Origin: Paracoccus jeotgali | GTDB taxonomy: Bacteria > Pseudomonadota > Alphaproteobacteria > Rhodobacterales > Rhodobacteraceae | Reading direction: 5' to 3' | NCBI RefSeq assembly: GCF_002865605.1 | Contig: NZ_CP025583.1 | Location: forward strand, 1-37,500 | DNA length: 37,500 nt | Shown: one piece after another, positions 443 to 29,776 of the stretch | How the letters are laid out: the number at the start of each line of letters is the position of its first letter | Position numbering within the stretch: position 1 is the stretch's first letter | Made by a program: the position numbers and the translations under genes | Notes under the pieces: model-generated | Databases searched by the model: none | What the model was told of the DNA's origin: nothing | Seen by the model: only the letters and a program-made list of their open reading frames with translations

Positions 443-452
443 GCATGAGGAC

Positions 453-5810: not shown

Positions 5811-5853
5811 CGCGGGAATTGCGCTTTCGCGCGGCAGGGAATAGCTTCGCCGG

Positions 5854-10137: not shown

Positions 10138-10937
10138 GCGGTCAGGCTTTCGCTGCGGGGCTGCGTTTCGTCCAGCTCGACCACGATGATCTCATCGAGC
10201 GGCGCGATCTCGGCGCCGGTCAGCACCTCGGCATAGACGCCGAAACAGGCATCGCCGAAGCCTTCGGTCAGGACGCGGATCATGTCGTGATCGGGCTCGC
10301 CCGTATCGGTGTCGACCGAGGTCGCGGCGCAGCGGCCGATGCCCTCGCGCAGGATCACGGTCGCCGCGCCGATGCGCAGGCATTTGCCGATCCACTCACG
10401 CTCGGCAAAGGGCTCGAACCCTTCCACCCACAGATTGCCGCGCCAGCGTTCCACGCCAAGCCGCTGCCCGACATGGCTTTCCACCGCGCGCAGGCTGTCG
10501 AGCGACAGGATCGAGATGAAGGGCGCGCGGCTGTCGGTCAGCGGCACCGGCCCCGTCACCAGCAGCGCGGGTTCAGGCTTTTCTGCGGGCCAGAGCGGCC
10601 GCAGCCAGTCCAGCAGGCTGGCGTGATCCTCGTCCTTGGTGGGGTCGAGCTCGATCTCTCCGGCCGTCGGGTGCTGCAGGCACAGCTTGCCATTGGTCAG
10701 CCCGCCGCTGATCGCCTGCAGTTCCGGCCCGGCGGCTCCGCGCAGGAAGGCTGCCTTGGGCAGCCAGCCGGCGAGCTGATCGCCCTCCGTCAGGCGCTGG
10801 GTTGCGCTGTCATGCATGACCGCCCAATGCCGGTCCCAAGGCAGCGTCCGCCCCGCCTCGAGCCGGGCGCTGTCCAGCTTTTGACGCCCGATGGACTTGA
10901 CCGGATAGCGCCAGATCTGGGACAGGCGGCCGGTCAT
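10134..10937 (-). CDS. MOSC-domain protein (YcbX-like)
   Basis: A 267-residue protein with an N-terminal MOSC_N beta-barrel (residues 1-120, opening LSQIWRYPVKSIG) and a C-terminal MOSC domain. The conserved cysteine of the molybdenum-cofactor site is present in GRCAATSVDTDTGEPD, close to the family pattern RCxxTxVDxxTG. Relatives (YcbX, mARC) transfer or carry a sulfurated molybdenum cofactor and reduce N-hydroxylated compounds; substrate here is unknown. Its ATG overlaps the yidC stop by four bases (ATGA), and its stop overlaps the engB start the same way, so it is translationally linked on both sides. No direct functional link to membrane insertion is known. Confidence 0.88.
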   Translation of the reverse strand: MTGRLSQIWRYPVKSIGRQKLDSARLEAGRTLPWDRHWAVMHDSATQRLTEGDQLAGWLPKAAFLRGAAGPELQAISGGLTNGKLCLQHPTAGEIELDPTKDEDHASLLDWLRPLWPAEKPEPALLVTGPVPLTDSRAPFISILSLDSLRAVESHVGQRLGVERWRGNLWVEGFEPFAEREWIGKCLRIGAATVILREGIGRCAATSVDTDTGEPDHDMIRVLTEGFGDACFGVYAEVLTGAEIAPLDEIIVVELDETQPRSESLTA

Positions 10938-17310: not shown

Positions 17311-17371
17311 GATTTTCCGCTTTTGGGGGTTGCACCCCGCAGCGCTGCAATCTAGTTAGCCGTCCTACAGC

Positions 17372-17448
17372 GGACCCGTAGCTCAGCTGGATAGAGCACC
17401 AGACTACGAATCTGGGGGTCGGGCGTTCGAATCGCTCCGGGTCCGCCA
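17372..17448 (+). tRNA. tRNA-Arg (anticodon ACG), integration target
   Basis: A complete cloverleaf of 77 bases with encoded CCA. Acceptor arms GGACCCG and CGGGTCC pair; D stem GCTC/GAGC; anticodon stem CCAGA/TCTGG around loop CTACGAA (anticodon ACG, read as inosine for CGU/CGC/CGA); T arm GGGCG-TTCGAAT-CGCTC. Its last 15 bases plus TT are repeated at 29609-29625, so an element integrated into the 3' end and restored an intact tRNA. Confidence 0.97.
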
Positions 17449-17450
17449 TT
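17434..17450 (+). repeat. attL: left copy of the 17-bp attachment core (tRNA-Arg 3' end)
   Basis: GCTCCGGGTCCGCCATT, covering the 3' side of the T stem, the acceptor stem, discriminator and CCA of tRNA-Arg plus two more bases. The identical sequence recurs at 29609-29625 and the flanks differ immediately on both sides. Confidence 0.92.
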
Positions 17451-17495
17451 AATCCAGAAATTTCGTTGATCGTCAGCCGCTTGCGGGACTGATTG

Positions 17496-18563
17496 TCAAA
17501 CCGCCTCTGCGGGTTTGACAGTTGCAGTGTCGTCTTCGGTTTTCCCGAGCGCAAGCATAGCCCGCGCTGCGAGATCTTTTCGGCTGGCTGCGACAGTGTA
17601 TCGAGTCACCTCTGCCAGGGATCTATGGCCGGAAATGGCCATGATTTCGTGAGCGGTGCATCCCGCTTCCGCCAGGCGACGGCACGTAGCTTTCCGCAAT
17701 CCGTGCGGCGACAGCCCGTCCGGCAGGCCCGCTTCCCGCACCATCTGCCTAAACCAGTTGGTGAAGCCTGCGGGCACGAACGGCTTGCCCTGCGCGGTCA
17801 TCAGGAAGGTCAGGTTATCGAGCGGCAGCTTGTCCAGCAGCGCCTTCAGGTCCGGGTGCAGGGGAATATGCACGTCCTGCCCGGTCTTTTGCTGCGTGAT
17901 CGACAGGACGCCGCTGCGGACATGCTGCCGCCCCATACGAACGACATCGCTGCGCCGCTGGCCGGTGTAAAGCAACAGCATCAGGGCGAGGTGTGCCCGG
18001 CTTCCGGCCTCGTGCTTCGCGGTGAAGGTAGCGATGTGATCCTCTTCCCACGTCAGGAAGCCGCCGCTTTTGCGCTTCGGCTTGCGAACGCCCTGCGTCG
18101 GATCATCCCCGCGCCAGCCAAGATCGACTGCGTGACGCATCAGCAGGTGAATCATCCGCAACATGTTTCCGGCTGCGGCGGGCGTGTCCGTCATGCCGCT
18201 GATGATGTTCTGCACGTGCCGCTTTTCCATGTGCGCAACGCGCTTGTCGCCATGGGCGAGGCGGAAGCGTTCGAGGATGCCGCGATAAGTCGTCTTCGTG
18301 GAGTCAGCCAAGCCTGTGAAGTCGCCCGTTCGATAGTAGCTGGCGACAAGTGCCGCAATGGTGCCGGGTTTGGATCGGCTTAGCCCAGCTTCGAGTCGTT
18401 CGCCCGCTGCCGCCTTATCGTAAGCCGCCATGAAGTCAGGACTCCAAGGCAGGCCCGGCAGGGCGATGCGGGAAAAACCAGGGCGGCGGTAATACCAGCG
18501 GATCTTGCCGTGCCGGTCTTCGAATCCTTGGCAATATTTTGGAGGCTTCCGCATCTGCTTCAT
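17496..18563 (-). CDS. Tyrosine recombinase (integrase) of the element
   Basis: A 355-residue phage-type site-specific recombinase. The N-terminal part has an arm-binding-like region and a SAM-like core-binding domain (about residues 70-160). The catalytic domain shows every key residue: Arg in LLLYTGQRRSD, Lys in QQKTGQDVHIPL, His and Arg in LSPHGLRKATCRRL, His in ISGHRSLAEV and the nucleophile Tyr in VTRYTVAAS. It should recombine the tRNA-Arg 3' end (attB) with the element attP. Start chosen at the ATG two bases after the AlpA-like stop; a TTG 12 bases earlier is also open. It lies next to attL, reading toward the tRNA, and is last in the leftward unit. Confidence 0.95.
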   Translation of the reverse strand: MKQMRKPPKYCQGFEDRHGKIRWYYRRPGFSRIALPGLPWSPDFMAAYDKAAAGERLEAGLSRSKPGTIAALVASYYRTGDFTGLADSTKTTYRGILERFRLAHGDKRVAHMEKRHVQNIISGMTDTPAAAGNMLRMIHLLMRHAVDLGWRGDDPTQGVRKPKRKSGGFLTWEEDHIATFTAKHEAGSRAHLALMLLLYTGQRRSDVVRMGRQHVRSGVLSITQQKTGQDVHIPLHPDLKALLDKLPLDNLTFLMTAQGKPFVPAGFTNWFRQMVREAGLPDGLSPHGLRKATCRRLAEAGCTAHEIMAISGHRSLAEVTRYTVAASRKDLAARAMLALGKTEDDTATVKPAEAV

Positions 18564-18565
18564 GC

Positions 18566-18862
18566 TCAGTCCCAATCGTTCGTTTCGGGGACTGAATCCT
18601 CGCCCGGAAGGTCGTCAAACGCCAAGTCCAAAGCGCGCACGTCCCAAATCTTGCGGGTGCCGACGCGCTTGGGACCGGGCATTTCGCCAGCAATCACCAT
18701 CTTGTCGAAAGTCGTAGGGCTGACGCCGATGTAGCCCGCCGCCTCGACACGCGACAGCCCACGCCGGGAAGGCGGTGCAATCGGTGAAGAGGGGCGGGCT
18801 TCCATCTGCATCGGTTCAGCCTGCGAACGTCGTGCCGTCTGCCTTGGCTTGCGCTTCGGCAT
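18566..18862 (-). CDS. AlpA/excisionase-like helix-turn-helix protein
   Basis: A 98-residue DNA-binding protein. The segment LSRVEAAGYIGVSPTTFDKMVIAGEMPGPKRVGTRKIWDVRALDLAFD is a MerR-superfamily winged helix of the AlpA/Xis type; such proteins direct excision or activate the integrase gene in satellites and prophages. The start at 18862 overlaps the upstream gene by 47 bases; an internal ATG at 18811, four bases after that gene's stop, would give 81 residues and keep the whole domain. It is two bases from the integrase start, so both are surely cotranslated. The acidic C-terminus contains FDDLPGED, resembling short motifs in two other element proteins. Confidence 0.8.
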   Translation of the reverse strand: MPKRKPRQTARRSQAEPMQMEARPSSPIAPPSRRGLSRVEAAGYIGVSPTTFDKMVIAGEMPGPKRVGTRKIWDVRALDLAFDDLPGEDSVPETNDWD

Positions 18863-19010
18863 GGGCTTTCACTTCGTCAGCAGTCGCGGGGCGTGCCGAC
18901 TTCAGCGCGTCGAACTGCTTGGCCTCGGAAGGGGTGGCTTCGAAGACCGTGCGGGCAGGAATGACTTCCTCGCCACGGATGATCTTCGTTTTCGAGAACA
19001 GTTTAGCCAT
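18816..19010 (-). CDS. Small element protein, unknown (64 aa)
   Basis: A 64-residue protein with an N-terminal basic strand (KLFSKTKIIRGEEVIPARTVFEA) and an Ala/Glu/Lys-rich helical C-terminus. The layout recalls small proteins often found next to decoration and capsid genes in Mu-like and HK97-like head clusters, but I cannot name a family. GAGGAAA lies upstream at good distance for a ribosome-binding site. It sits 12 bases after the DUF2190-like gene and overlaps the AlpA-like gene, so it belongs to the head operon. Confidence 0.7.
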   Translation of the reverse strand: MAKLFSKTKIIRGEEVIPARTVFEATPSEAKQFDALKSARPATADEVKAHAEAQAKADGTTFAG

Positions 19011-19022
19011 GGTCGTTTTTCC

Positions 19023-19349
19023 TCAAAAGCCGCTAAGGCGAACGCGGACGGTTGCAGTGCTGGCGGGTGCGGCTTCGACAGCCACGCCCAGTTTCGTGTT
19101 GCCGCTGGCGGTGCTGGTCGCGAGGCCGGAGTCCGCGTTCCAGTGGACAGCCGCGCCGACTGGGAAGGCGTTGGCTGCGATCTTGGGCAGTTCGAAGACG
19201 CCCGTGACCGACACGTCAACAGCTTCACCGGCCAGTGCATCGCCGCCCGCAACGCCCTTGATCTCGCCCGCGATGACCACGCCGCCCGACAGGACGACAG
19301 CGGGGGCGGGGATGGTGAGCGTGTCGCCCTTCTGGATGTAGTTGCGCAT
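19023..19349 (-). CDS. DUF2190-like capsid decoration protein
   Basis: A 108-residue beta-rich protein. It opens MRNYIQKGDTLTIPAPA and contains VVIAGEIKGVAGGDALAGEAVDVSVTGVFELPK and VGAAVHWNADSG, a pattern typical of DUF2190 proteins, small head-decoration (cement) proteins found beside major capsid genes in tailed phages. It should bind the outside of the mature capsid and stabilise it. Its ATG is one base after the stop of the gpW-like gene. Family call is from pattern recognition. Confidence 0.8.
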   Translation of the reverse strand: MRNYIQKGDTLTIPAPAVVLSGGVVIAGEIKGVAGGDALAGEAVDVSVTGVFELPKIAANAFPVGAAVHWNADSGLATSTASGNTKLGVAVEAAPASTATVRVRLSGF

Positions 19350-19350
19350 G

Positions 19351-19569
19351 TTAAAGCCCTTTCGAGGTTTGCAGCCGGATCAGCGCCATCCGTCCGCGTT
19401 GAAGTTGTGCAATCTCGGAGTCCAGCGCTGCGATTGCCCGCTCAATCTCGGCCTGCGACCGATACTGAACCGACTCCCCGTTGCTGTCGGTGAAGCTGCG
19501 GACGCTCGAGAACCGGGCGTCCTGTAGTTCCTCGCGGAACTGGTGAAGGCGATAGACGCGCCCGTCCAT
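19351..19569 (-). CDS. gpW-like head-tail connector protein
   Basis: A 72-residue protein of the size of lambda gpW. The segment FSSVRSFTDSNGESVQYRSQAEIERAIAALDSEIAQLQ fits the gpW pattern: a short beta hairpin followed by a helix. gpW sits under the portal and makes the head ready to accept a tail. In a tail-less satellite this would be the piece that must fit a helper's tail. The start is ATG 19569, sharing one base with the upstream stop (TGATG); a GTG three bases earlier is also possible. Confidence 0.7.
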   Translation of the reverse strand: MDGRVYRLHQFREELQDARFSSVRSFTDSNGESVQYRSQAEIERAIAALDSEIAQLQRGRMALIRLQTSKGL

Positions 19570-21380
19570 CACGCACCCGCCGCACGGTAAGAGCCGCGCC
19601 AGTCAAGCCAGCCGCAGCCGAAGTCCAGCCATGCCCGGAACTTCATGCCAAGCTGGTCCCATGCTTCCTGACGTTGGATCTGCACGCCTTGGGCTGCCGA
19701 CAGATAGGCATATTGCAGCGACGGCACGCGGGACGGATCGGCCATCAGATACCAAGCATTGCCGGTCAGGCGCGGCTCGACCACGGGGATCAGCTTGCCT
19801 GCGAAGGCGGCAACATCATCGGTCGTCGCGGCATAGATCGAGGCAAGCAGCTTTTCGGCAGTGGTTTCGAGGTCAGGCGACACGATCAGGTAACGCGGCT
19901 TGGCGTCGATGATGGTCTTGCCGTCCAAACCCTTGACCCTCCGCATGTGCTTGCGGGCTGCCGACAAGGCCGCTTCGGTCAGAGCCGAACCTGCGCCCGT
20001 GCCCACATTGCCCCGGCTGGCGTGGAAAACCGGCTGCCCATCGGACAGAACCGGATTGCCGGTCAGCAGCGCGACCAGTTCGTCAGCCTCAGTCTGCGCG
20101 GCGGCTTGGCCCATTGCAGCGGTCATGTCGCCCAGAAGGCCCAGATCGTCGTCGATCAGCAGCTTGCGGCTGGCGTTGATTGCCCGCCCGAAGGTGCGCA
20201 GCGACATCGACTCGCCCGCCTCGGCGCGGGTCGTGTGGGTGAACTCTCCATGTTCCGTCATCTCTTCGAATCGGCCCATCTCGCCAAGGCGGACGGCAGT
20301 CGAACTTTTGAAGTTCGGAAGCGTCCGTTGACGGGCAAGCGCCTTCAGCGGGCTTTCGGCTGCCTGATAGGCTTGGGCCGCAACCTTGCCCATCGCGTTC
20401 GAGACCAGCAGCGGGAAGTCGGACGTGCCGTGCATCGACCGCGTGAAAATCTCATCCGCCGACAGTCCACGAGTCGAGGTGCCCGCCCGTTGCAGGGCAT
20501 CGGCAGCCAGATCGCGCAGCGACATGTTGACGAATTCGCGGCTGGCTTCTGGCAGGTCGCCGCCCGTCATGCGGAAGGCCAGCGCATCGGCAGCGCGCGT
20601 CTGGATCTCTGCCGGGTTGTCGTGCGACTGGCGGACGCGGATGCGCGGGGCTTGGCACGTCATCATCGCTTCACGGGCAGCGGTGCGGACTTCTTCGTCC
20701 GTCACGGCTTCTTCGCCCAGATCCTCACCCCAGGTTTCGGGCAGGTTGCAGGCGCTGCGCAGCGTGTCGATCAGCGCAGCGCGGGTTACGAGGTCAAAGG
20801 GCATTTCTGCGCTCCTATGGATGATTGCATTGCGGTCGGCAGGCACCGGCACAAGGCTGACCTCCAAGAGCCGCCATTTGCTGGCAGTCTTGATCCTTGT
20901 GCCGTCAGGGTTCCGGGTCTCGCGCCAGGCGAGAACTTGATAGCCAGCGGAGACGTGGCGCAAACTGCCATCCGTAATCCGCTGGCGAAGGGGTTCGACA
21001 TCTTCCGCCATGCTCAAGCGCAGGGTGGCGCGCACGGACGAACCGTCGATAGTCAGCCCGTAAGCCCGGCCAACGGTTTCGCGGGCGGATTGCCGATGGT
21101 CCGTCAGCAGCGGGACATCCTCATCAGCCTCAAACAGCAGGCCAGCCGGGTCGAGAACTTCGAGGAAAGGCCCCCGACTGTCGCGGCGCTGAACAGGAGT
21201 CCCGGTTGCCACAACAGCCGTCACGGTCAAAGCTTCAGGGTCGAGTGTCCCGGCCAGCGGCATCTTGCGCGTCAGCCGTTCGCCTGTCGTGCCATCTGGC
21301 GCGGGCGTATGGATGGGCTTCACATCGCGGATGCGGGACGCGCGGTCGGGATTGCCGGTCAGTGTGACGCGCTCATTCAT
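19569..21380 (-). CDS. Prohead protease / major capsid protein fusion
   Basis: A 603-residue two-domain head protein. Residues about 35-190 are an HK97-type (U35) prohead protease: His95 in LLTDHRQ, Ser144 in RHVSAGY and the EVSLVPVPAD block are the expected catalytic region. Residues about 300-603 are a Mu gpT/HK97-like major capsid protein, with TRAEAGESMSLRTFGRAINASRKLLIDDDLG, QPVFHASRGNVG, LIVSPDLETTAEKLL and a C-terminal QRQEAWDQLGMKFRAWLDFGCGWLDWRG. Between them is an acidic helical scaffold-like segment. Normally these are separate genes; fusions are known in some phages. The protease should cut itself away after assembly. It overlaps the portal gene end by 8 bases. Confidence 0.88.
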   Translation of the reverse strand: MNERVTLTGNPDRASRIRDVKPIHTPAPDGTTGERLTRKMPLAGTLDPEALTVTAVVATGTPVQRRDSRGPFLEVLDPAGLLFEADEDVPLLTDHRQSARETVGRAYGLTIDGSSVRATLRLSMAEDVEPLRQRITDGSLRHVSAGYQVLAWRETRNPDGTRIKTASKWRLLEVSLVPVPADRNAIIHRSAEMPFDLVTRAALIDTLRSACNLPETWGEDLGEEAVTDEEVRTAAREAMMTCQAPRIRVRQSHDNPAEIQTRAADALAFRMTGGDLPEASREFVNMSLRDLAADALQRAGTSTRGLSADEIFTRSMHGTSDFPLLVSNAMGKVAAQAYQAAESPLKALARQRTLPNFKSSTAVRLGEMGRFEEMTEHGEFTHTTRAEAGESMSLRTFGRAINASRKLLIDDDLGLLGDMTAAMGQAAAQTEADELVALLTGNPVLSDGQPVFHASRGNVGTGAGSALTEAALSAARKHMRRVKGLDGKTIIDAKPRYLIVSPDLETTAEKLLASIYAATTDDVAAFAGKLIPVVEPRLTGNAWYLMADPSRVPSLQYAYLSAAQGVQIQRQEAWDQLGMKFRAWLDFGCGWLDWRGSYRAAGA

Positions 21381-22731
21381 CTTTGTTTACCTTTTGTTCA
21401 ACAAAATGTTGAATAGGGCTGCTGAAGGTCAGGCCCAGCGACGTTTCGCGCGCCCGGTCGGCGGCAATTTCGGCGTCCAGCTTTTCGATGGAATAGCCCA
21501 GTGCGCTGACAGCTTGGCGGCGGCTCATCAGCCCGGCTTCCATCTGTTCGATAACCGCGCGGGCATCCTTGGCCGGATCGACCCACGGCTGAGCGGGCGG
21601 GATGAATTCCACGTCAAACAGTTCGTCGCTGAACTCTAGCCCCAGTTCCAGCGCCGCCATGGTCGCCACCCGACGCCAGACCGGATCGAGGAACTGCGGA
21701 ACAAGCGTCTGAAACTGGTAGCGTTCGACGCGCTGGCGGAATGCGACAAGAGCCGCCCGCAAGCTGCTGTAGTTCGCTTGGGAAACGTCAGACGTGACCA
21801 GCCAGACCGGCACACCTACACCCGACGCGATGCGGTGGGTCAGGTGGCGCAGGAACTCGCCTGCCTGCTGCGACTGCTGCGGCGCGACGGCATGGACCTT
21901 CCAGTTGCCCGCCAGACGCAGGATCGCACCGGGTTCTAGGCTCTGCCCGTCTGCCAGCGGATCGTCGGTTGCAACGTCGGATTCGTTGGTTAGGATTACC
22001 GACAGCAGTGCCGCGATCTTGGTTTGCGTCAGCAATGCGTCTTCGGCGCTGTCCAGTTCGGCCAGGGCCAGAAGGATCGGGGCGAGCGGGCTGACACCAC
22101 GGACAGCGCCAGGGCCAGCGGGTTCGAAAACCTGCATCATGTCGGCAGCGTCCACCCTGACAGGCGGGGCATAGGTGGCCTGAATCGCGTCCGGGCGGGT
22201 CGGGTGGACGTGGAAGGCGATAGCCGCCCCGTCATCGTTCAATTCGACGCCTGCCGCGATGGAGTCGGTCGTCAGATCCGCGACCTGTTCCGGGGGCAGT
22301 TGCAACAGCTTGTCACCGCGCCACATGGCGAAGGCTTCGCCGTCGATGCGCTGGGCTTTCACGATAGCGGTTTGCATGGCCCAGAAGTCGCCCCGCCCGC
22401 TGGCATCGGCCCGCTTGGCCCATCGGGCAAAATAGGCGTCCAGAGCCTTCCGCGTTTCGGGGTCGCTGTGCTGGCTGGTCGGGACCATGCCCGCGCCGAT
22501 GGTGGCGTCTACCCAAGCTGCGATAGCAGAGACCGCAAGCGCGTTGTTTTCGGCGGCATGGCGGGCGCGGCTGCGGATCGAGGAACTGGCCGCGATGGTT
22601 TCCGGACCATAGCTGGCAAATCGGTTCTGCCCCGCGTTGAACCGGGTTCGGCTGGCCGTGGCAGCGTCATAAGCGCGAACCGCAGATGGCTTTTCAGGGG
22701 CGCGATTGAGGATGCGCGACAGCAGGCCCAT
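21373..22731 (-). CDS. Phage portal protein (lambda gpB family)
   Basis: A 452-residue portal subunit; twelve copies form the DNA entry vertex of the capsid. Lambda-family features: an N-terminal RAYDAATASRTRFNAG, the SRARHAAENNALAVSAIAAWVDATIGAGM block, DGEAFAMWRGD, and SQANYSSLRAALVAFRQRVERYQ. The C-terminus is helical and charged. Start chosen at ATG 22731, with GAAAGG about 8 bases upstream; the frame extends to a TTG at 22749 inside the preceding gene. Stop of the upstream regulator gene lies just 5 bases before this start. Confidence 0.93.
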   Translation of the reverse strand: MGLLSRILNRAPEKPSAVRAYDAATASRTRFNAGQNRFASYGPETIAASSSIRSRARHAAENNALAVSAIAAWVDATIGAGMVPTSQHSDPETRKALDAYFARWAKRADASGRGDFWAMQTAIVKAQRIDGEAFAMWRGDKLLQLPPEQVADLTTDSIAAGVELNDDGAAIAFHVHPTRPDAIQATYAPPVRVDAADMMQVFEPAGPGAVRGVSPLAPILLALAELDSAEDALLTQTKIAALLSVILTNESDVATDDPLADGQSLEPGAILRLAGNWKVHAVAPQQSQQAGEFLRHLTHRIASGVGVPVWLVTSDVSQANYSSLRAALVAFRQRVERYQFQTLVPQFLDPVWRRVATMAALELGLEFSDELFDVEFIPPAQPWVDPAKDARAVIEQMEAGLMSRRQAVSALGYSIEKLDAEIAADRARETSLGLTFSSPIQHFVEQKVNKDE

Positions 22732-22735
22732 GGGA

Positions 22736-23293
22736 TCAGCCTTTCGCAAACAGCGGAAGGATTTCGGCGATCAATTCGGAGGCGGGCAGCGAAAAGCGCG
22801 CGATCTCCGGCTTCGGACCTTTGCCGATCAGGCGCAGCGCGTTGTCAGCGCGCGCTTGGCTTTCCGGGTCGATTTCCCGATCAGACTTCCAATCAGCCCG
22901 GACAAAGACCGTCCGCTCTGTCGTCATGATGATGTGAAGGGCGAACTCTTCGCCGGCTTCGACTCGCTGGATCGCCTCGGCAGCGTGGGAGACGCCCATT
23001 TGGCCGCCGCTCGGCAGCTTCTCACGACGCTCACCCGAGCCGCTGAGCCAGCGCGTCAGCGTATCAATCGAGGCGCGGGGGATGCCGAATTCCGATGCGA
23101 TCTGCGCAAGTCGGATCGTTGCGGCGGCGGCGCGATCATACAGGAAAATGCGCCCCTGCTGAGTGGTCGGCGGCAGGAAGTGACGCTGCACTAGGTTGCG
23201 AAGACCTTTCTCGAACTGCGCGTGGTGCTCATCCTCTACATCGTCGTGACGAGCAAGGCGGGCAGCGATCTCGGCAAGCGTGTAATCGGCCAT
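22736..23293 (-). CDS. MerR-like DNA-binding protein, putative element regulator
   Basis: A 185-residue protein. The N-terminal half (YTLAEIAARL..., then EKGLRNLVQRHFLPPTTQQGRIFLYDRAAAATIRLAQIASEFGIPR) looks like a MerR-type winged helix-turn-helix that reads DNA and ends in a helical dimerisation stretch. The C-terminal half has no family I recognise (AEAIQRVEAGEEFALHIIMTTERTVFVRADW). A good ribosome-binding site (AAAGGAG) precedes the ATG. It opens the leftward head-gene operon and faces a structured intergenic region, the position of a master regulator; no CI- or Cro-like gene is otherwise seen in the element. Function is inferred from fold and place only. Confidence 0.65.
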   Translation of the reverse strand: MADYTLAEIAARLARHDDVEDEHHAQFEKGLRNLVQRHFLPPTTQQGRIFLYDRAAAATIRLAQIASEFGIPRASIDTLTRWLSGSGERREKLPSGGQMGVSHAAEAIQRVEAGEEFALHIIMTTERTVFVRADWKSDREIDPESQARADNALRLIGKGPKPEIARFSLPASELIAEILPLFAKG

Positions 23294-23331
23294 GGCTGAA
23301 TCTCCTTTCGTCTCTATATCTCACGGATGAG

Positions 23332-23361
23332 TTGACGAGTCCAGATGTTTCTGCCATATAG
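23332..23361 (+). promoter_or_regulatory. Candidate rightward promoter of the cargo genes
   Basis: TTGACG (23332-23337) is followed after 17-18 bases by CATATAG (23355-23361), a fair sigma-70-type match. It points toward the three stem-loops and the 23533 gene. Unverified. Confidence 0.4.
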
Positions 23362-23386
23362 GTTTCAGTCCCAAGTTCCAGAGAAC

Positions 23387-23506
23387 GGACGGGGCGGCGC
23401 AGGTCGCCCCGTCCACCCACCCCATCGGAACCGTTCGTCCTCCTGGCGCACCCGATGGCGAAAGGCCCTCGTCTCGCTGTCTGGGTCAGCAGGGCGGGGG
23501 CCTTTC
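23387..23506 (+). ncRNA. Three tandem stem-loops: structured leader RNA or attenuator (candidate)
   Basis: Three inverted repeats follow each other within 120 bases: GGACGGGGCG/CGCCCCGTCC (23387-23396, 23405-23414), CCATCGG/CCGATGG (23422-23428, 23452-23458) and GAAAGGCCC/GGGCCTTTC (23460-23468, 23498-23506), the last with an inner GCTG/CAGC stem. All arms match exactly. They lie between a promoter-like sequence and the first rightward gene, whose ribosome-binding site starts 15 bases after the last stem. This may be a leader, attenuator or small RNA. Confidence 0.45.
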
Positions 23507-23532
23507 TCATTCTGAGAGGCAAAGGAATGACC

Positions 23533-23856
23533 ATGCCAGACGTGCTAGAGGCTTCAGCTAAGATCGACCGGCGCTTTGCCCGCCGCTTTCCCCAGCGCCA
23601 ATGCTGGTTGCGACCTGCAACACCTGCAGAACGAAAGCAGCTTTTCGCGGCATCGCTGGAAGGGCTTCAACCGTGTATGGCGATCTGGCGAACGGGGGCT
23701 GACTACATGTGCTTTCCATTTTTGAGCACGTCATCAGATGTTGCAGACGCTTATGAAGGTGCGGCGGCTGAGACCGTAGTTAAGGCTGCTCAAGCACTAC
23801 GTGAAGGCGGGATCGCGCGCATCATCGCGGCTCGGTCGGGACGCCTGATTCGCTAA
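23533..23856 (+). CDS. Hypothetical protein, first cargo gene of the element (107 aa)
   Basis: A 107-residue soluble protein of unknown family, with an N-terminal helical and basic part (KIDRRFARRFPQRQCWLRPATPAERKQLF) and a C-terminal Ala-rich helix ending in a basic tail. No signal peptide or membrane segment. ATG 23533 is preferred because AAGGA lies six bases upstream; ATG 23527 is in the same frame. It runs opposite to the head genes and is preceded by three stem-loops. Being in the accessory slot of a satellite, it could be host-beneficial or anti-phage cargo; there is no direct evidence. Confidence 0.6.
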   Translation: MPDVLEASAKIDRRFARRFPQRQCWLRPATPAERKQLFAASLEGLQPCMAIWRTGADYMCFPFLSTSSDVADAYEGAAAETVVKAAQALREGGIARIIAARSGRLIR

Positions 23857-23940
23857 CGACGAGCGGCGAGACATCCACTTGCAATGCTTGCGCCGCTGAG
23901 ACCTGAGGGGCTATAAGCGCATCGTTTAGCCGGATTGCGC

Positions 23941-24441
23941 ATGTTTGAATCTCTTCTGCCTCACGCTGACTTCATGCCGCGAATCCAACAGCACGGGCCG
24001 CATCGCTGGGCAGAGGAGACCATCGGGCATAATCGCGTTGTGGGGCGGGTTTACGCCCTTAGGGTCACCTTGTGCGGGTATGGGTTCTGCGAAGATTTAG
24101 GCGACGAAGCTGCGGAACTAGTGTTTACGGTTTGTGCTTACGACGCGCTTGATCCAGAGGCAGAAGAGGAAGTGTTCTACTCAGGCAGCGAGACTAAGCA
24201 GCACTTCTCAGACAAGCCATTTCGCAAGAAAGTCATTAAACTTATTGCTACCCTGGGCTGCCATCTGGTGGAAGATGTAAAGCCTAAAAGGCTGATTTTC
24301 GTGACGAAATTCCCTGCTCTTCCTCTTGCAGCTGCGCCGAAGTACGAGTTGCTCTGTGAGAAAATCCTTGCGCTTGGGTACACGTGCTCTAAATATGAGA
24401 CTACCGATCGAAGGCAACTCTGGGACATGCGTAGGACTTAG
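23941..24441 (+). CDS. Hypothetical protein, second cargo gene (166 aa)
   Basis: A 166-residue soluble protein with no family that I recognise. It mixes aromatic-rich beta-like stretches (VYALRVTLCGYGFCEDLG, ELVFTVCAYDALDPEAEEEVFYSG) with a basic central helix (FRKKVIKLIATLGCHLVEDVKPKRLIFVTKF) and has several Cys. Codon use and base composition are visibly richer in A/T than the surrounding phage and chromosomal genes, suggesting separate acquisition. ATG 23941 was chosen; a TTG six bases earlier is also open. The gene ends 37 bases before the next rightward start. Confidence 0.6.
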   Translation: MFESLLPHADFMPRIQQHGPHRWAEETIGHNRVVGRVYALRVTLCGYGFCEDLGDEAAELVFTVCAYDALDPEAEEEVFYSGSETKQHFSDKPFRKKVIKLIATLGCHLVEDVKPKRLIFVTKFPALPLAAAPKYELLCEKILALGYTCSKYETTDRRQLWDMRRT

Positions 24442-24478
24442 AGTAGGTACTCGTGGTGCGGCGTGCATGGAGCGCAAG

Positions 24479-24682
24479 ATGAGCAAGCATAAGCTGGAAC
24501 AGCAGGTTGTCGACCGCGTAGTGTCGAACCACCTTGAACGACTGAAAGCGATAACCGCTTCGACAAAGTCGGATCGGGCTCACCGTATGCGCGTGATCTC
24601 CCAATACAATGAAATGGTGGAGCATCCTAATCGGCACTTTGAGTTCGATTGGTTCATGGAGCAGCGCAAGCTTCGGGCATAA
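24479..24682 (+). CDS. Hypothetical small protein, third cargo gene (67 aa)
   Basis: A 67-residue, charged, mostly helical protein (KLEQQVVDRVVSNHLERLKAITAST..., YNEMVEHPNRHFEFDWFMEQRKLRA). No family recognised. The start at 24479 has GGAG seven or so bases upstream; ATG 24467 and much earlier codons are in the same frame but overlap the preceding gene. It converges with the terminase gene, ten bases apart, and a strong hairpin lies just beyond its end. Confidence 0.55.
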   Translation: MSKHKLEQQVVDRVVSNHLERLKAITASTKSDRAHRMRVISQYNEMVEHPNRHFEFDWFMEQRKLRA

Positions 24683-24692
24683 GTGTACCTCC

Positions 24693-26480
24693 CTATCGGA
24701 CTAACCAGTTCGAGTGCGTTATTCTAACAGGTTTTCTGGGTGCGGCAGGCGAGGAAAGTTCCTCCTGCCGCCTTCTCTTATCCGCCGTCACGAGAGACCG
24801 TGCCGCGACAGCATAAGTCGCACAGTCTAGCGCTTCGACCCTGCGCCCGCTAAGGCGGTGCCATTCGAGGACCGGGACGCCCTTGCTGTAGCGGGTCCGC
24901 AGCCGTTCGCCCGTGATCTGTTCCGCCCATGACGCACTCAGACTGTCGCTGAACCGCATTGTGCCAGAGGTGACGAGACCCATGATCCGACGCTTGACCG
25001 AGTCCACGCCCACAAGCTGAAGGCGCAGCCATTTCTTGCCCGGCACGTTACCTAGGCGGGCCGGCGGCTCACGGAAGCCCGAGATGCCCTTGCACGCGAA
25101 GACGCGCTGCGATGCCCGGCCCCGGCAGAACTCATAGACCGCTTCTGATGTCTGACCATCCCCCGAGTCGATCAGGGCCGCGTCATAGCGTAGCATTCCG
25201 CCTGCGGGATGCTGGAACGTCCGCGCTAGCAGATCCGACAGCCCTAGCCAGAGGTCCGGCCCGAACGGATTGCCCCAGATGATTTCGTGCGCCAGGACGA
25301 TTGGCGCGTCCTCCGCTGTCCAGCCCAGCGTTGAGACCTCTAGCCGGTCATGCTGCACGTCCACGCCAGCCGTCAGGGCGATGACCTCAGACGGCACCCG
25401 GTCTAGCCCGACAGGTTCTAGGCGGCTGAGAATTTCGGCATCGTCCATGCCGTCGCTGTCATCGCGCCAGACCTGACCGGCAACCGTGTTGATCCACGTC
25501 TTGAGGGTGGCCGGGTCGCGCTTGGCTGCCAAAAACTCGGACGCCAGCACGCCCCAAGCTGCTGTTGACAGGATGGACGCGCCGAAGGTGTTGAGCCGGT
25601 AACTGTGATGTCCCGTGACCTCGGGGCGGGTCGCCCGCCACCTGCCGCGCTCAATCATCGCGGGCTTGCCGGACTCTTCCGTGATGCAGCCACAAGACGG
25701 GCAGACAAAATAAGCGTCCTGCGGCTTTCCTTCCGGCCAATGGATCATGGACCACGCCAGTTCGTGGAAGTCGCCGCAGTGCGGGCATGGCAGTTCCCAG
25801 ACGCGGCAGTCGCCATCCTCATAGGCGCGGGCGATCCGGCTTGTCGCTTCATCGACAGGAGTCGAGGCCATGACGATCTTGCGGCGGGTGCCGTAGGTCA
25901 TTGTTCGACGGATTGCGAGCGACACAGGGTCGCCCTCATCGCCTGCTGACATGTCGAGCCCGTCCACCTCATCGAGCCACAGGACGCGGGCCGTCCGCGC
26001 GCGCAGGTTCTTGGGGCTCGCGCCAGAGATCAGCGCCAAACTGCCGCCAGGATAATGCCGCGAAAGCATGGTGTCCCGTCCGCTGACGTTCTCTGTCAAG
26101 GCTGACCGCAAGGCGGGACTGGCGGCAAAGGTCGGCTCGATAATCGAGGTCAGCAACATGCGGCAGTCGGACTCGGACGGCATGACGACAAGCTGCGGGG
26201 CCGGATCGTTCAAGGCGAAGTGCCCGATGCCTGCGACCATCAACTGTGTCGCCCCGACTCGGGCACTCTTGAGGATCGTGACACGCTCGACGCGCGGATC
26301 GCCTATCGAGCGGGCGACTTCGCGCTGCCACGGCATCAGGACCATGCGCCCAGACTGCGCCGCGACAGTAGCGGGCAGCCGGACATTCGACTCGACCCAA
26401 TCCCCAAGGTCGAGATGCGCCGGGGGCTTCAGCGCCGCATAGAGGTCAGCGCGCAGTGTGCGGAAGGTTTCAGCGTTCAT
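24693..26480 (-). CDS. Terminase large subunit (lambda gpA family)
   Basis: A 595-residue packaging motor and nuclease. ATPase part: adenine-binding MPWQREVARSIGD, the deviant Walker A KSARVGATQ and Walker B VLWLDEVDGLD. A zinc-ribbon-like pair CPHC and CPSC follows. Nuclease part: acidic residues in GVDVQHDRLEV, ALIDSGDGQTSEAVYEF and ALDCATYAVAARS. This matches the gpA terminases, which cut at cos sites and translocate DNA into the prohead through the portal. Start MNAETFRTLR overlaps the small-subunit stop by 11 bases. As the element has its own terminase, it should package its own DNA. Confidence 0.95.
   Translation of the reverse strand: MNAETFRTLRADLYAALKPPAHLDLGDWVESNVRLPATVAAQSGRMVLMPWQREVARSIGDPRVERVTILKSARVGATQLMVAGIGHFALNDPAPQLVVMPSESDCRMLLTSIIEPTFAASPALRSALTENVSGRDTMLSRHYPGGSLALISGASPKNLRARTARVLWLDEVDGLDMSAGDEGDPVSLAIRRTMTYGTRRKIVMASTPVDEATSRIARAYEDGDCRVWELPCPHCGDFHELAWSMIHWPEGKPQDAYFVCPSCGCITEESGKPAMIERGRWRATRPEVTGHHSYRLNTFGASILSTAAWGVLASEFLAAKRDPATLKTWINTVAGQVWRDDSDGMDDAEILSRLEPVGLDRVPSEVIALTAGVDVQHDRLEVSTLGWTAEDAPIVLAHEIIWGNPFGPDLWLGLSDLLARTFQHPAGGMLRYDAALIDSGDGQTSEAVYEFCRGRASQRVFACKGISGFREPPARLGNVPGKKWLRLQLVGVDSVKRRIMGLVTSGTMRFSDSLSASWAEQITGERLRTRYSKGVPVLEWHRLSGRRVEALDCATYAVAARSLVTADKRRRQEELSSPAAPRKPVRITHSNWLVR
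24742..24781 (+). terminator. Hairpin beyond the cargo genes, possible rightward terminator
   Basis: GCGGCAG-GC-GAGGAA (24742-24756) pairs with TTCCTC-CTGCCGC (24759-24771), a two-base bulge on the left side, then CTTCTCTTA. It lies 60 bases after the last rightward gene, inside the 3' end of the terminase gene on the other strand. T run is broken, so the terminator call is tentative. Confidence 0.4.
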
Positions 26481-27012
26481 CGTGGAGTCCTTCCAGCGCC
26501 AAGCGCATTTCTTCTTCAAGGATCACGGCGGCGTCAAGGTTCAGCCCAGCGCGGGCCGCAACACGTGGCGGGATAGCGAGGATCTGGGACCGCAAATCCG
26601 TCGCGACCGTGACCCATTCCGCACGCACCTCCGAAACTGCCACCATCTCGCCAGCGGCCAAACGGTTCTTCTGTTCTTGCGCTGTCGCCTGCGCGCGGGT
26701 GAGCCGCAGCTTTTCCGCCTTCAGTTCGTCACTGGCCGCAGAAGCGGGACTGCCGTTGCGCGATGCAGCTTCCCGCAGGCGCGAAACGTAGCGGCGGACG
26801 GACTCGTGAACATCATAGCGCCCCCGATTTGAGCGAACGAAGACGCCCTCACGCGCCTTGGTTCGAACCATGCTCAGAGACAGCCCCAGAAGCTCGCTCA
26901 TGCCTCTTTCGTCCAGCTCATAGACCGATGGTGCGGAATCGGCAGAAGGGGCCTCTGAGGGGCTGGTTTCGCCGCCCAGCAGGTCATCGAACATCTCAGA
27001 GTGTACGCTCAT
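26470..27012 (-). CDS. Terminase small subunit (Nu1-like)
   Basis: A 180-residue packaging-recognition protein. An N-terminal tail (MSVHSEMFDDLLGGETS) leads to a winged helix-turn-helix (ERGMSELLGLSLSMVRTKAREGVFVRSNRGRYDVHESVRRYVSRL) and then a long coiled-coil-like helix (LKAEKLRLTRAQATAQEQKNRLAAGEM) for oligomerisation and large-subunit contact. That order matches lambda Nu1. It should bind the element's own cos or packaging site. Start ATG 27012 overlaps the stop of a small upstream gene by four bases (ATGA); a longer frame exists but runs into that gene. Confidence 0.85.
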   Translation of the reverse strand: MSVHSEMFDDLLGGETSPSEAPSADSAPSVYELDERGMSELLGLSLSMVRTKAREGVFVRSNRGRYDVHESVRRYVSRLREAASRNGSPASAASDELKAEKLRLTRAQATAQEQKNRLAAGEMVAVSEVRAEWVTVATDLRSQILAIPPRVAARAGLNLDAAVILEEEMRLALEGLHDER

Positions 27013-27188
27013 GCCGGATTCCCCATTTCGAAAAGTTTTGAAAAGCGAAAACCTCTGCGGCTCCGCGTCCCCCGCAAGCCGTGCCCCCAAGGGAAGGACC
27101 CGCACGACCTCACAACCCACAAGGGCTGCTGGCCTTCCTTGCGCGATCTCACAACCGTTTCTGCTGCGCTCATCATTCCAGCCTTCAT
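27009..27188 (-). CDS. Small coupled gene between primase-helicase and terminase (59 aa, unknown)
   Basis: A 59-residue basic protein (SRKEGQQPLWVVRS and GLRGTRSRRGFRFSKLFE). It is real by context: its ATG shares a base with the primase-helicase stop (TGATG), with AAGGAG upstream, and its stop overlaps the terminase small-subunit start (ATGA). No family recognised. It might regulate packaging or simply carry translation through to the terminase genes. Confidence 0.55.
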   Translation of the reverse strand: MKAGMMSAAETVVRSRKEGQQPLWVVRSCGSFPWGHGLRGTRSRRGFRFSKLFEMGNPA

Positions 27189-29482
27189 CACAGGACTCCT
27201 TGCCCCGCATCGTCCGGACAATCGGACACTCCTAAAGGAGTGTGTCCGAGTCCGTCCGGATTTCGACGCTTTGCCATCTCGGACAGTCCGGGATTTGTCC
27301 GGACAGAGTCCGGATTGTCCGGCTCGCCTAGGTCATCGAAGTCGTCGGCATGATCGTCTTCGATCCGATAAGCGCCATCTTGGAAGATCACGCTGCCCTT
27401 CTGGACCAGTCCCTTTAGCGCCCTGTCCGTCACGCGCCTGCGGCTGTCCGGATTGTCCGAGGATGAAACCTTACGGCTGTCGATGCAGAGCGGACGCAGT
27501 TCGGCTTCCGTCACTTCGCCGCCCGATAGGTGGATCACGTCGAGCACGGCGCGTTCTGCCGCTGTCAACTTCACCGCCTGCGGTGCTGACGATGCGTCCA
27601 GTTCCTCGCAACGGGGCAGGGTAATCGCATCCCCGTCTTCATCCTTGCCGCCATCTTCGACAGCGATACGGAAGGCGATGTCGCGGTCACAGGTGCCGTT
27701 GCGGTTCTTGGTGAGCTTGCCCCGGATCACGCCGCTGTCATCCCGCTTCACATGCAAGGCGACATCTAGCGCACCATTCAGCAGGCTATGCCCGCGCGGG
27801 GTAGCGCCTTCGGCCTTCGTGTCGTGATGGATCAGCACGACTGCCGCGCCCCATTGCGTCAGCTTGCGGGCCACTGCCACGACGCGCCCCATCGCCTCGG
27901 CGCTGTTTTCCTCCAGGCCGGGAAAGGCCATTGCCAGCGTGTCGATGACGATCAGCTTGGGCAGACGTTCCTTCACCGCCGCGACCAGTGCCGCGAGGTC
28001 GGGCGACTCCACCGCCAGCAGGTTCGACACGCCTTCGACCAGGTGGAAGTCGGGCGCGTCATAATGGGCCAGCCGCAGGGCCTTCACCCGTCCGCGCATC
28101 CCGTGCGGATCTTCGGCAGCAACATAGAAGACGCCCCCGGCCTTGCAGCGCATCCCGAACGCTTCCCGCCCTTGGGCGACAGCATAGGCGAGGGCAGGGG
28201 CCAGTAGCGATTTGCCAGCACCCGGCGCACCAAAGATGCAGCCAACGTCACCCTCAGCGATCAGGCCCTTGATCAGATAGGACCGCGCTGGGGCTGCATC
28301 GCACTCGGCAGGCGTCAGGAAGGTCAGCCGTGCGGGCTTCTTTGCCTTGGCGGCTGGCGCGTCAGGCTGGTCTTCGAAGTCCGCGTCCAGATCGTCATAC
28401 TGGTCCGGCTCTTGCCAGCCGAACGCCTTGGCGCGGATCATGATCGTCCCGCCGCCCGTGTTGCCAGCGCGCCCGGCTTTCAAGCTGCGCCAAATCTTCG
28501 CGCATTCGACCCGGCTATAGCTGGGGTTCTGTTTTGCCCATTGGCAGAAGGCGTCAAAGCCTTTACGCGACCCATCCGACTCCTCATGCAGCGCCATGCC
28601 GATGTCGCGGAAGTCCATCCATCCCGGCGCGCCATCGTTCGGAATATGGCTCAGCGCGGAAAGGACGACATCCCACGACTTGCCGCACTTGCCCTGTCCT
28701 TTGCGATCAGGAATGTCGCCGCCCAGGATGTCGTCGAACATGTCAGCGACGACTGCCCCACGCTTGCCGATTGCGGGTACGTCCGATGCAGTGTCGATCG
28801 CGCGTCCTTCGACCAGATGCACCTCGGGATCGCTGCCGATGCCGCCGAAGTAATAGCTTTGAGACCTAGCGAACGACTCGTTAGCAAGGATGCCGCCCAG
28901 CGCGCCGTTGACGCGGGCGCAGAGGGCATCACGCTCTTGGGGCGTCACTGGGGCTGAGGTCGGGACCAGCACCCGCCAGCGGGGCGCGTCGGGCTTGTGC
29001 GACGGGGTAGTGTAGACCAGCGCGGCGATGTCAGCAGCCTTCAGCATCTGGACTGCTTCAGAGGCCGTCACGCCCCCGGCGTCATAGTCGCCTTCTATAC
29101 CGTGGATCGTGCCAAGGTTGCCGTCATGGCGAAGTGAGCCCTTTTCCGTCCGCTTGTCTCCGAACGTCGCCAGCTTCAGCAGGGGTAACGCCGCCTTGCT
29201 GTCAGCCCGCATCCTGCGGATGACACCGGCCAGCGTCCGAAGGCTCATTGCATCGGTGCTGAGGCGCTTGGCGTGGACGTTGGAAAAGCGCGTGACCGCA
29301 AGGGGCGCATCGAGCGGCGAAAGCCCCCCTAGCAATCCGTCCACATCGTGATACATTGCGGTCTGAGGTTGTGTGACTTCCTCTGAGACTTTCGACCCGG
29401 TTGCGCCCGCCAGCGCGCCGGGTCTTGTCGTTTCAGGGCTTCCGCTTAGCAGATCCTCGAATTGATCTAGATGCATTCCCAT
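27188..29482 (-). CDS. Primase-polymerase / RepA-type helicase replication protein
   Basis: A 764-residue multidomain replication protein. Residues about 60-235 resemble an archaeo-eukaryotic primase: acidic motif GIEGDYD (128-134) and TPSHKPD with the SxH (159-165). Residues 269-345 (SWDVVLSALSHIPND...KIWRSLK) are a PriCT_2 domain. A RecA/RepA-like helicase follows: Walker A GAPGAGKS (418-425), Walker B LIVIDT (about 510-515) and HHD (552-554). The C-terminus has a winged helix and an NPD-rich tail whose DNA holds a GTCCG repeat cluster. It should start replication of the excised element, as the alpha protein of P4 does. ATG 29482 has GAGGA upstream; ATG 29476 is an alternative. Confidence 0.85.
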   Translation of the reverse strand: MGMHLDQFEDLLSGSPETTRPGALAGATGSKVSEEVTQPQTAMYHDVDGLLGGLSPLDAPLAVTRFSNVHAKRLSTDAMSLRTLAGVIRRMRADSKAALPLLKLATFGDKRTEKGSLRHDGNLGTIHGIEGDYDAGGVTASEAVQMLKAADIAALVYTTPSHKPDAPRWRVLVPTSAPVTPQERDALCARVNGALGGILANESFARSQSYYFGGIGSDPEVHLVEGRAIDTASDVPAIGKRGAVVADMFDDILGGDIPDRKGQGKCGKSWDVVLSALSHIPNDGAPGWMDFRDIGMALHEESDGSRKGFDAFCQWAKQNPSYSRVECAKIWRSLKAGRAGNTGGGTIMIRAKAFGWQEPDQYDDLDADFEDQPDAPAAKAKKPARLTFLTPAECDAAPARSYLIKGLIAEGDVGCIFGAPGAGKSLLAPALAYAVAQGREAFGMRCKAGGVFYVAAEDPHGMRGRVKALRLAHYDAPDFHLVEGVSNLLAVESPDLAALVAAVKERLPKLIVIDTLAMAFPGLEENSAEAMGRVVAVARKLTQWGAAVVLIHHDTKAEGATPRGHSLLNGALDVALHVKRDDSGVIRGKLTKNRNGTCDRDIAFRIAVEDGGKDEDGDAITLPRCEELDASSAPQAVKLTAAERAVLDVIHLSGGEVTEAELRPLCIDSRKVSSSDNPDSRRRVTDRALKGLVQKGSVIFQDGAYRIEDDHADDFDDLGEPDNPDSVRTNPGLSEMAKRRNPDGLGHTPLGVSDCPDDAGQGVL
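27212..27460. repeat. GTCCG iteron-like repeat cluster with a central palindrome (candidate origin)
   Basis: Within 250 bases GTCCG/CGGAC recurs about a dozen times on both strands. GTCCGGATTGTCCG occurs identically at 27308-27321 and 27446-27459, and an inverted variant at 27212-27229. The palindrome ACACTCCT-AA-AGGAGTGT (27226-27243) is flanked by TCGG and GTCCGA. Repeats at a replication gene suggest an origin, but they also encode NPD-type peptide repeats. Confidence 0.45.
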
Positions 29483-29608
29483 GTGCAGTTCCTCTGTTGA
29501 GGCCCCGCAAACGGGTTGACGATCTCAAAGAAAATCCTTGGAAAGCAATGGCAAAAACTCGAACGGTTTGACACGTCAGCATGTTGTTCTTGCTAACTTG
29601 TTTCATTT

Positions 29609-29625
29609 GCTCCGGGTCCGCCATT
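29609..29625 (+). repeat. attR: right copy of the 17-bp attachment core
   Basis: Identical to 17434-17450. It is the displaced tRNA-Arg 3' end; the bases to its right (GTTTTTCCG) should be the original sequence downstream of the tRNA. The stretch 29483-29608 before it is A/T-rich and carries no gene. Confidence 0.92.
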
Positions 29626-29701
29626 GTTTTTCCGAGAAAGAATAGTGTGAACCTCTCCGCTGATGCGGTGGGGTTTTGCGGGGTCTAGACGGTATGCCGT
29701 G

Positions 29702-29738
29702 CCTGCGTCGCCAGCCCGTCAAGACTGGGCGACGCAGG
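29702..29738 (-). terminator. Strong inverted repeat downstream of mgtE
   Basis: CCTGCGTCGCC (29702-29712) and GGCGACGCAGG (29728-29738) are exact reverse complements around a 15-base loop, 39 bases beyond the mgtE stop. No clear T run follows in either direction. It may be a transcript-end structure or part of the sequence originally downstream of the tRNA. Confidence 0.4.
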
Positions 29739-29776
29739 ACGGCACGCGTGGGAGCTGCGCCCTGTGCAGCCGAGTC

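What the first reader, a model, noticed from the sequence alone, without database searches (positions are those of the whole stretch)
17434..29625. A tail-less, capsid-encoding satellite (cf-PICI-like) integrated in tRNA-Arg of an alphaproteobacterium
The sequence shows integrase, AlpA-like protein, primase-helicase, both terminase subunits, portal, protease-capsid fusion, connector and decoration protein inside exact att repeats, with no tail, baseplate, lysis or CI-type gene in 12.2 kb. By established knowledge this is the content of capsid-forming phage-inducible chromosomal islands. Intact, overlapping genes argue against a decaying prophage. Its details (all-leftward order, integrase last, fused protease-capsid) may make it a new subtype.
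Basis: partly seen in the sequence, partly recalled or inferred. Interest (0 to 1): 0.88.

Follow-up and report, generated by a model that had tools for sequence, protein, structure and literature searches.

The report
Tail-less capsid-making satellite in tRNA-Arg
A 12-kb mobile element in a bacterial chromosome carries the genes for a virus head but none recognisable for a tail, and similar units sit in dozens of related bacteria, so it is probably a satellite that makes its own shells and borrows tails from other phages.

Summary
Window 17434-29625 is a 12,192-bp unit inside exact 17-bp repeats at the 3' end of tRNA-Arg(acg); the repeat occurs only twice in the 3.3-Mb genome. It encodes integrase, AlpA-like protein, primase-helicase, both terminase subunits, portal, protease-capsid fusion, connector and decoration protein, and no recognisable tail or lysis gene.
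It is a family, not one deleted prophage. Of 60 relatives, 37 have the integrase 351-1313 bp after the capsid gene; 22 of those 37 are closed by repeats at tRNA 3' ends (9.9-13.7 kb). Tail homologues turned up in one of 63 loci, apparently a satellite-prophage fusion. One tree branch splits 61 satellite-locus capsids from 15 phage/prophage capsids; core genes show purifying selection.
It works like a capsid-forming PICI but fails two tested traits of that family: HNH nuclease and PF05065 capsid. The host list I could read names no Alphaproteobacteria.
No excision, packaging or helper was shown.

The parts
17372..17448 (+). tRNA-Arg(acg), attachment target; its 3' end lies in the att core
   Evidence: ARAGORN, Rfam tRNA 64.6 bits
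17434..17450 (+). att core, tRNA side
   Evidence: 17-bp exact repeat, 2 copies in the genome
17494..17520 (.). two TGTCAAACC words in opposite orientation, probable integrase arm sites
   Evidence: exact at 17494-17502 (+) and 17512-17520 (-); three exact matches in the 37.5-kb window, all within 70 bases of an att core (with one mismatch 7 matches against 4.1 expected, so the number alone is not unusual); the word is in 7 of 16 far-end regions of the family; role inferred
17496..18563 (-). tyrosine integrase (ATG 18563; TTG 18575 possible)
   Evidence: PF00589 4.2e-20, PHROG 1 5.6e-44, start
18566..18862 (-). AlpA-like HTH protein
   Evidence: PHROG 25900 3.7e-11, PHROG 66 excisionase 1.6e-6; Pfam HTH_17 below cut-off
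18816..19010 (-). 64-aa protein of unknown function, after the decoration gene in some relatives
   Evidence: relatives; no family match
19023..19349 (-). head decoration/cement protein
   Evidence: PF09956 1.1e-25, PHROG 122 2.2e-28
19351..19572 (-). gpW-like head-tail connector (Ad1)
   Evidence: PHROG 2545 4e-7; family profile matches the gene between TerL and portal of tailed phages at 9e-5 to 7e-9
19569..21380 (-). prohead protease-major capsid fusion
   Evidence: S78 + Phage_capsid_4 + Mu gpT, PHROG 4523 1.4e-150
21373..22731 (-). lambda-type portal (ATG 22731; TTG 22749 possible)
   Evidence: PF05136 4.9e-66, start
22736..23293 (-). predicted MerR-type regulator with CvkR-like fold, directly upstream of the portal
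23533..23856 (+). cargo gene (107 aa from ATG 23533; longer frame from 23455), relatives in three other satellites
   Evidence: no family match
23935..24441 (+). cargo gene, 168 aa, unknown
   Evidence: no Pfam or PADLOC match; one marginal PHROG match, 8e-3, unknown function
24467..24682 (+). possible small cargo ORF, 71 aa
   Evidence: coding not shown
24693..26480 (-). terminase large subunit, GpA type (ATG 26480)
   Evidence: PF05876 9.3e-75, PF20454 3.3e-69, start
26470..27012 (-). terminase small subunit (ATG 27012)
   Evidence: PHROG 57 2.5e-23, Phage_Nu1 below cut-off, start
27188..29482 (-). primase-helicase
   Evidence: PriCT_2 6e-13, AAA_25 9e-35; RepA in the PDB 1.8e-8
29565..29573 (-). 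third exact TGTCAAACC word, other arm
29609..29625 (+). att core, far side

Best explanation
It is an integrated phage satellite that makes and fills its own heads and depends on a helper phage for tails (and probably lysis). Likely cycle: a helper signal relieves repression, perhaps by the MerR-type regulator before the portal (inferred); integrase with the AlpA-like protein excises a 12,175-bp circle (att anatomy shown, excision inferred); the primase-helicase replicates it (domains shown, act inferred); portal, fused protease-capsid and decoration protein build a small head, TerS/TerL fill it, and the gpW-like connector makes the neck (genes shown, assembly inferred); helper tails join it (inferred from the absence of tail genes). 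The slot between TerL and the regulator holds exchangeable cargo, in some relatives with matches to anti-phage genes.
For: Complete head and packaging set within att repeats. 37 of 60 relatives have the integrase 351-1313 bp after the capsid gene; 22 of the 37 are closed by att repeats of 13-45 bp (45 was the longest word tried) at tRNA genes of ten further anticodons besides Arg(acg), 9,896-13,703 bp. 33 tail proteins of four phages hit 1 of 63 loci, against 9 ORFs in each of three prophages of the same genome. No tail Pfam among 79 further ORFs (95 aa or longer) of 23 att-bounded units, the window included; one head-tail attachment protein. One branch (SH-aLRT 98) splits 61 satellite-locus capsids from 15 phage/prophage capsids. 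dN/dS 0.09-0.16 integrase (five nearest), 0.14-0.17 portal (four nearest), 0.17-0.32 capsid. Three tailed prophages in the same genome.
Against: No excision, particle, packaged DNA or helper was seen. 15 of the 37 gave no att pair (nine without a tRNA found, six with one; some end at a contig end), and 23 of 60 have no integrase downstream. No empty site with the window's right flank was found in 23 loci of the genus. G161 shows a satellite-type capsid beside tail fragments, and G006 carries a broken capsid gene. dS is often above 1; dN/dS is higher for small genes and distant pairs (up to 0.45 for portals, 0.57-0.68 for distant regulators). Tails unlike those of the four reference phages could be missed; the three prophages used as positive control are close to one of those phages; only 25 of 73 PHROG families of the cargo scan were printed.
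Confidence: 0.85

Rival explanations
1. A prophage that lost its tail and lysis genes and is decaying.
For: Head genes resemble those of three prophages of the same genome (portal 32-34% identity; capsid 36-37%); a broken copy exists (G006), and G161 joins satellite and tail pieces.
Against: Same order in 37 of 60 relatives, 22 closed by att repeats; satellite capsids separate from phage capsids; purifying selection; the window's core genes are open frames of full length.
Confidence: 0.05
2. A helper-independent mini-virus whose tail function lies in unrecognised genes (the 64-aa gene, cargo) or that needs no tail.
For: Several small genes have no family.
Against: Unassigned genes are small (64, 107, 168, 71 aa) and the cargo differs between relatives; apart from frames antisense to assigned genes no long unassigned frame is left for a tape measure; the connector is of the tailed-phage type.
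Confidence: 0.05
3. A domesticated capsid island (defence or gene-transfer-agent-like) that no longer moves itself.
For: Some relatives carry cargo with defence-model matches; the genome also has a GTA-like cluster.
Against: Integrase and AlpA-like gene under purifying selection, att cores at many different tRNA genes, and a second AlpA-integrase pair next to one unit (G346) argue for movement.
Confidence: 0.05

Closest known systems
Capsid-forming PICI (cf-PICI)
   Same: integrase, AlpA-like gene, primase, TerS, TerL, portal, protease, capsid, connector; no tail; integrated; similar size (12.2 kb against an average of 14 kb in PMC10803314)
   Different: No HNH gene; capsid not PF05065 but gpT/PF25209 type fused to an S78 protease; GpA terminase and lambda-type portal; Alphaproteobacteria are not in the host list of PMC10803314
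cf-PISP satellite-plasmid TG54 of Vibrio (PMC13230959)
   Same: small, tail-less, own head genes
   Different: episomal with parA/repA, PF05065 capsid, HNH
Streptomyces satellites MulchRoom/MiniFlayer (PMC10690885)
   Same: own capsid and packaging genes; helper tail inferred by its authors for one of them
   Different: virulent helpers, no primase, direct terminal repeats, unrelated hosts
Tailed phages vB_PsuS_Psul1 and RcKemmy, and the RcKemmy-like prophages of this genome
   Same: GpA-type terminase, lambda-type portal, fused protease-capsid, cement protein
   Different: 38-41 kb (the two named phages) with tail and lysis genes; Psul1 has CI/Cro; the gpW-like gene lies before the portal, not after the capsid
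CvkR repressor of type V-K CAST (PMC9938897)
   Different: 12% identity, another kind of element; function here not tested

Membership tests
cf-PICI | own capsid, protease, portal, connector, TerS and TerL | tested here: met
cf-PICI | no tail genes | tested here: met
   sensitivity limited to the models and tails used
cf-PICI | integrase, AlpA-type regulator, primase | tested here: met
   AlpA below the Pfam cut-off, supported by PHROGs
cf-PICI | HNH endonuclease beside the terminases (PMC10690885, PMC13230959, passages) | tested here: not met
   no HNH match in the 15 ORFs scanned at E 0.1
cf-PICI | capsid of Pfam PF05065 (900 published cf-PICI capsids in the tree of PMC13230959) | tested here: not met
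   P0006 matches PF25209, PF10124, PF04586 only; the one PF05065 hit in the genome is at 709164
cf-PICI | packages its DNA in its own heads and uses helper tails | not testable with these tools
   needs induction and DNase-protected DNA
cf-PICI | induced by a helper through a repressor | tested here: inconclusive
   a MerR-type regulator is predicted; role unknown
Classical PICI / P4-like | relies on helper capsid proteins | tested here: not met
   encodes its own capsid set; other P4 markers not tested
Deleted prophage | close relatives continue into tail and lysis genes | tested here: not met
   tail hit in 1 of 63 loci
Gene transfer agent | resident cluster without integrase and att (recalled) | tested here: not met
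   integrase and att present; the genome's GTA-like cluster is elsewhere

The most novel reading that the evidence does not exclude
A lineage of capsid-forming satellites that arose in Rhodobacterales independently of the known cf-PICIs, with another head type and a CvkR-like or Arc-like switch, and that takes its tails not only from phages but from the GTA and GTA-like tail modules that its hosts carry, so that a domesticated gene transfer agent could serve as its helper.
Probability: 0.08. Interest if true: 0.9.

Novelty: new variant of a known kind. Interest (0 to 1): 0.62.

Why it matters
If it works as proposed, building one's own head and stealing tails is not confined to the PF05065-type cf-PICIs: a second head type, with lambda-type portal and Mu gpT-related capsid, supports the same life style. 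Its capsid gene occurs at E 1e-90 or better in 39 of 394 sampled genomes of the host's family. Named strains with apparently complete units (Rhodobacter viridis JA737, Gemmobacter aquatilis DSM 3857, Rhodovulum steppense DSM 21153) make the idea testable, and the cargo slot is a place to look for anti-phage genes.

Tried and rejected
Deleted-prophage reading: rejected by synteny, att closure, capsid tree and dN/dS. 'Fused protease-capsid as a new trait': rejected, common in Paracoccus prophages. Empty-site search: of 23 genus loci with the left flank, 22 hold the tRNA-Arg; in none did the MgtE gene of the window's right flank lie in the fetched stretch after it (about 1.5 kb, less in two cut by contig ends), so no exact empty site. 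cos/pac search upstream of TerS: only a short shared word (GGGTCCTTCCC in 6 of 12 regions, the window's included), too weak to call. Rfam on 17300-29800: only the tRNA. PADLOC: nothing for the window's cargo; the primase matched mads_8 at 9e-5 over an AAA stretch. PDB by sequence: Mu gpT-type capsids and portals only, plus a chance-like hydrogenase and RedE row. The viral fold library gave no match at E 0.001. Literature: searches listed no title or abstract start that describes this family, but lists 27, 42 and 108 were cut (1 of 128,402, 20 of 154, 15 of 115), the library is partial, and the two defining cf-PICI papers (Alqurainy 2023, Moura de Sousa 2023) are not held (nothing of them read); absence from print is not shown.

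Rows dropped or left out: locus 'MAG' (L064) duplicates G345a; it, the broken G006 and the window are outside the count of 60 relatives. IMG/VR loci L049, L052 and L055 resemble named loci L061, L062 and L060, L050 is short and L056 weak: these five were not counted. Some of the 60 are near-copies (for example G259/G414, V54/G345a). In the downstream scan 68 of 98 ORFs were submitted. The regulator profile was built from 20 proteins, so only five of its 25 matches in 56 loci are independent, one of them a near-copy and one weak. Row L131 of alignment A3 was a wrong frame; it and six others were left out of A4. The two class genomes outside the family (G470, G494) were not examined for context.

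Full report
1. What is there. The window holds a unit of 12,192 bp (17434-29625) between two exact 17-bp repeats. The first repeat covers the 3' end of tRNA-Arg(acg), and the repeat occurs nowhere else in the 3.3-Mb genome. Three exact TGTCAAACC words, the only ones in the window, lie within 70 bases of the two att cores (with one mismatch there are 7 against 4.1 expected, so it is the position that counts), and the word occurs in 7 of 16 far-end regions of the family, the window's included. I take them for integrase arm sites (inference).

2. Genes. Leftward, in order of transcription: primase-helicase, TerS, TerL (GpA type), a 185-aa regulator, lambda-type portal, S78 protease-capsid fusion, gpW-like connector, cement protein, a 64-aa protein, AlpA-like protein, integrase. 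Several overlap. Two ORFs and a possible third between TerL and the regulator run rightward; none has a family in Pfam above cut-off or in PADLOC, and PHROGs gave one marginal match (8e-3, unknown function) for the 168-aa protein. The 107-aa one has relatives in three other satellites.

3. Relatives. The capsid fusion was sought in 61 genomes, in IMG/VR, in named GTDB genome contigs, and in 394 genomes of the family, of which 39 had a match at E 1e-90 or better, the own genome included. In 385 genomes drawn from the class, two outside the family reached that level. Regions of up to 20 kb were fetched and annotated with profiles built here. Named carriers are Gemmobacter serpentinus, G. aquatilis, Rhodobacter viridis, Rhodovulum steppense, Paracoccus lutimaris, Corticibacterium sp. 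and a Paracoccaceae MAG. The host itself is unnamed; Paracoccus or a near genus is a guess.

4. The unit is closed. Among 60 relatives (duplicate, broken copy and window excluded) 37 have the integrase 351-1313 bp after the capsid gene. 22 of the 37 have a repeat of 13 to 45 bp (45 was the longest word tried) joining the tRNA 3' end to a point upstream, 9,896-13,703 bp in all. The tRNA genes of the 22 are Arg(acg, cct), Met(cat), Ser(gga, gct, tga), Tyr(gta), Phe(gaa), Glu(ttc), Cys(gca) and Gln(ctg): 11 anticodons, 8 amino acids. Of the other 15, six have a tRNA but no pair found and nine no tRNA found; some of these end at a contig end. 23 of 60 have no integrase downstream: in a few an integrase match lies upstream, in others the fetched stretch or contig ends; these are less well defined.

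5. Tails. 33 tail proteins of four annotated phages hit nine ORFs in each of three prophages of the host genome, and one of 63 satellite loci: G161, where a truncated portal follows fragments of a tail tube and a tail chaperone gene 66% and 82% identical to a prophage of the host genome. This looks like recombination between a satellite and a prophage. The three prophages are close to one of the four phages, so the control does not prove sensitivity to distant tails. Pfam on 79 further ORFs (95 aa or longer) of the 23 att-bounded units listed 23 families, none of tails, one a head-tail attachment protein. The PHROG scans printed 25 of 73 and 25 of 56 families, no tail among those printed.

6. 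History. In a tree of 92 capsids, 61 from satellite loci (G161 and the window included) and 15 from phages or known prophages fall on two sides of one branch (SH-aLRT 98; 16 rows in no group; quick method, midpoint root, some long branches). dN/dS of the window against relatives is 0.09-0.16 for the integrase (five nearest; 0.38 for the dissimilar one of G018), 0.14-0.17 for the four nearest portals (0.38-0.45 for two distant ones), 0.17-0.32 for the capsid, 0.26-0.31 for the primase, 0.20-0.43 for the connector, 0.24-0.34 for the cement protein, and for the regulator 0.15 (G. aquatilis) and 0.57-0.68 in distant pairs; dS is often above 1. Capsid and portal identities do not run in parallel (G. 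serpentinus: capsid 77%, portal 36%), so modules are probably exchanged.

8. Cargo. In the 79 ORFs PADLOC matched HEC-06, SspE, DrmD and other models, most in single members (25 of 51 families printed), and Pfam found a GmrSD nuclease; the window's own cargo is unmatched.

9. Helpers. The host genome has three RcKemmy-like prophages and a fourth GTA_TIM locus about 7 kb from a PF05065 capsid, with tail homologues between them, which I read as its GTA (the satellite capsid profile matched one ORF there at 3e-7, not resolved further). Any may be the helper; none is shown.

10. Against what is known. Seen: passages of PMC10803314, PMC13230959, PMC10690885, PMC11389934, PMC12324425 and PMC13345588; of PMC6536676 the outline, abstract, part 1 of section 15 and passages. 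[quoted passage not shown] The window's unit lacks the HNH gene and has another capsid, so I do not file it as a cf-PICI; I say it works like one. A small element with PF05065 capsid and HNH gene sits at the same tRNA-Arg in G014, so both kinds use one site in the genus.

11. Verdict. Observation confirmed, interpretation supported with corrections; new variant of a known kind; packaging, helper and switch remain to be tested.

Noticed in passing
L174 (G014) 386-11148: A different tail-less-looking element at the same tRNA-Arg(acg): PF05065 capsid, PF04860 portal, PF03354 TerL, HNH, S78 protease, Prim-Pol, Arc repressor; about 10.7 kb between tRNA repeats. It resembles the classical cf-PICI head type in an alphaproteobacterium.
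   Followed up: partly
L187 (NZ_OW485609.1, Rhodovastum atsumiense RHOAph, 10,690 bp): Small ParA replicon with a protease-capsid fusion that falls on the satellite side of the capsid tree (long branch) but with no terminase or portal in the annotation given.
   Followed up: partly
L188 (NZ_KT751091.1, pANS of Synechococcus elongatus PCC 7942, 7,842 bp): Encodes a prohead-protease family protein weakly similar to the capsid fusion (25.6%, 2e-12): the plasmid may descend from a capsid satellite (guess).
   Followed up: no
L128 (G161): Satellite-type capsid after a truncated portal and fragments of tail tube and tail chaperone genes 66% and 82% identical to a prophage of the window's genome: probable satellite-prophage fusion.
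   Followed up: partly
L100 (G346): A second AlpA-integrase pair directly before the far att site: probably tandem satellites at tRNA-Phe.
   Followed up: no
L189 (Paracoccus sp. SMMA_5_TC plasmid pNSM5TCa): Head and packaging genes of the same order on a 326-kb plasmid, with two DNA methyltransferases and an HNH protein between TerL and portal, and no integrase annotated just after the capsid genes.
   Followed up: no
G000:C1:702000-720000 (L203): GTA-like cluster in the host genome: PF05065 capsid at 709164, GTA_TIM at 716358, tail homologues.
   Followed up: partly
L060 6944-7423 and L038 8758-9243: Similar lipoprotein-like cargo ORFs next to the relative of the window's 107-aa cargo gene in two satellites; a superinfection-exclusion role is a guess.
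   Followed up: no
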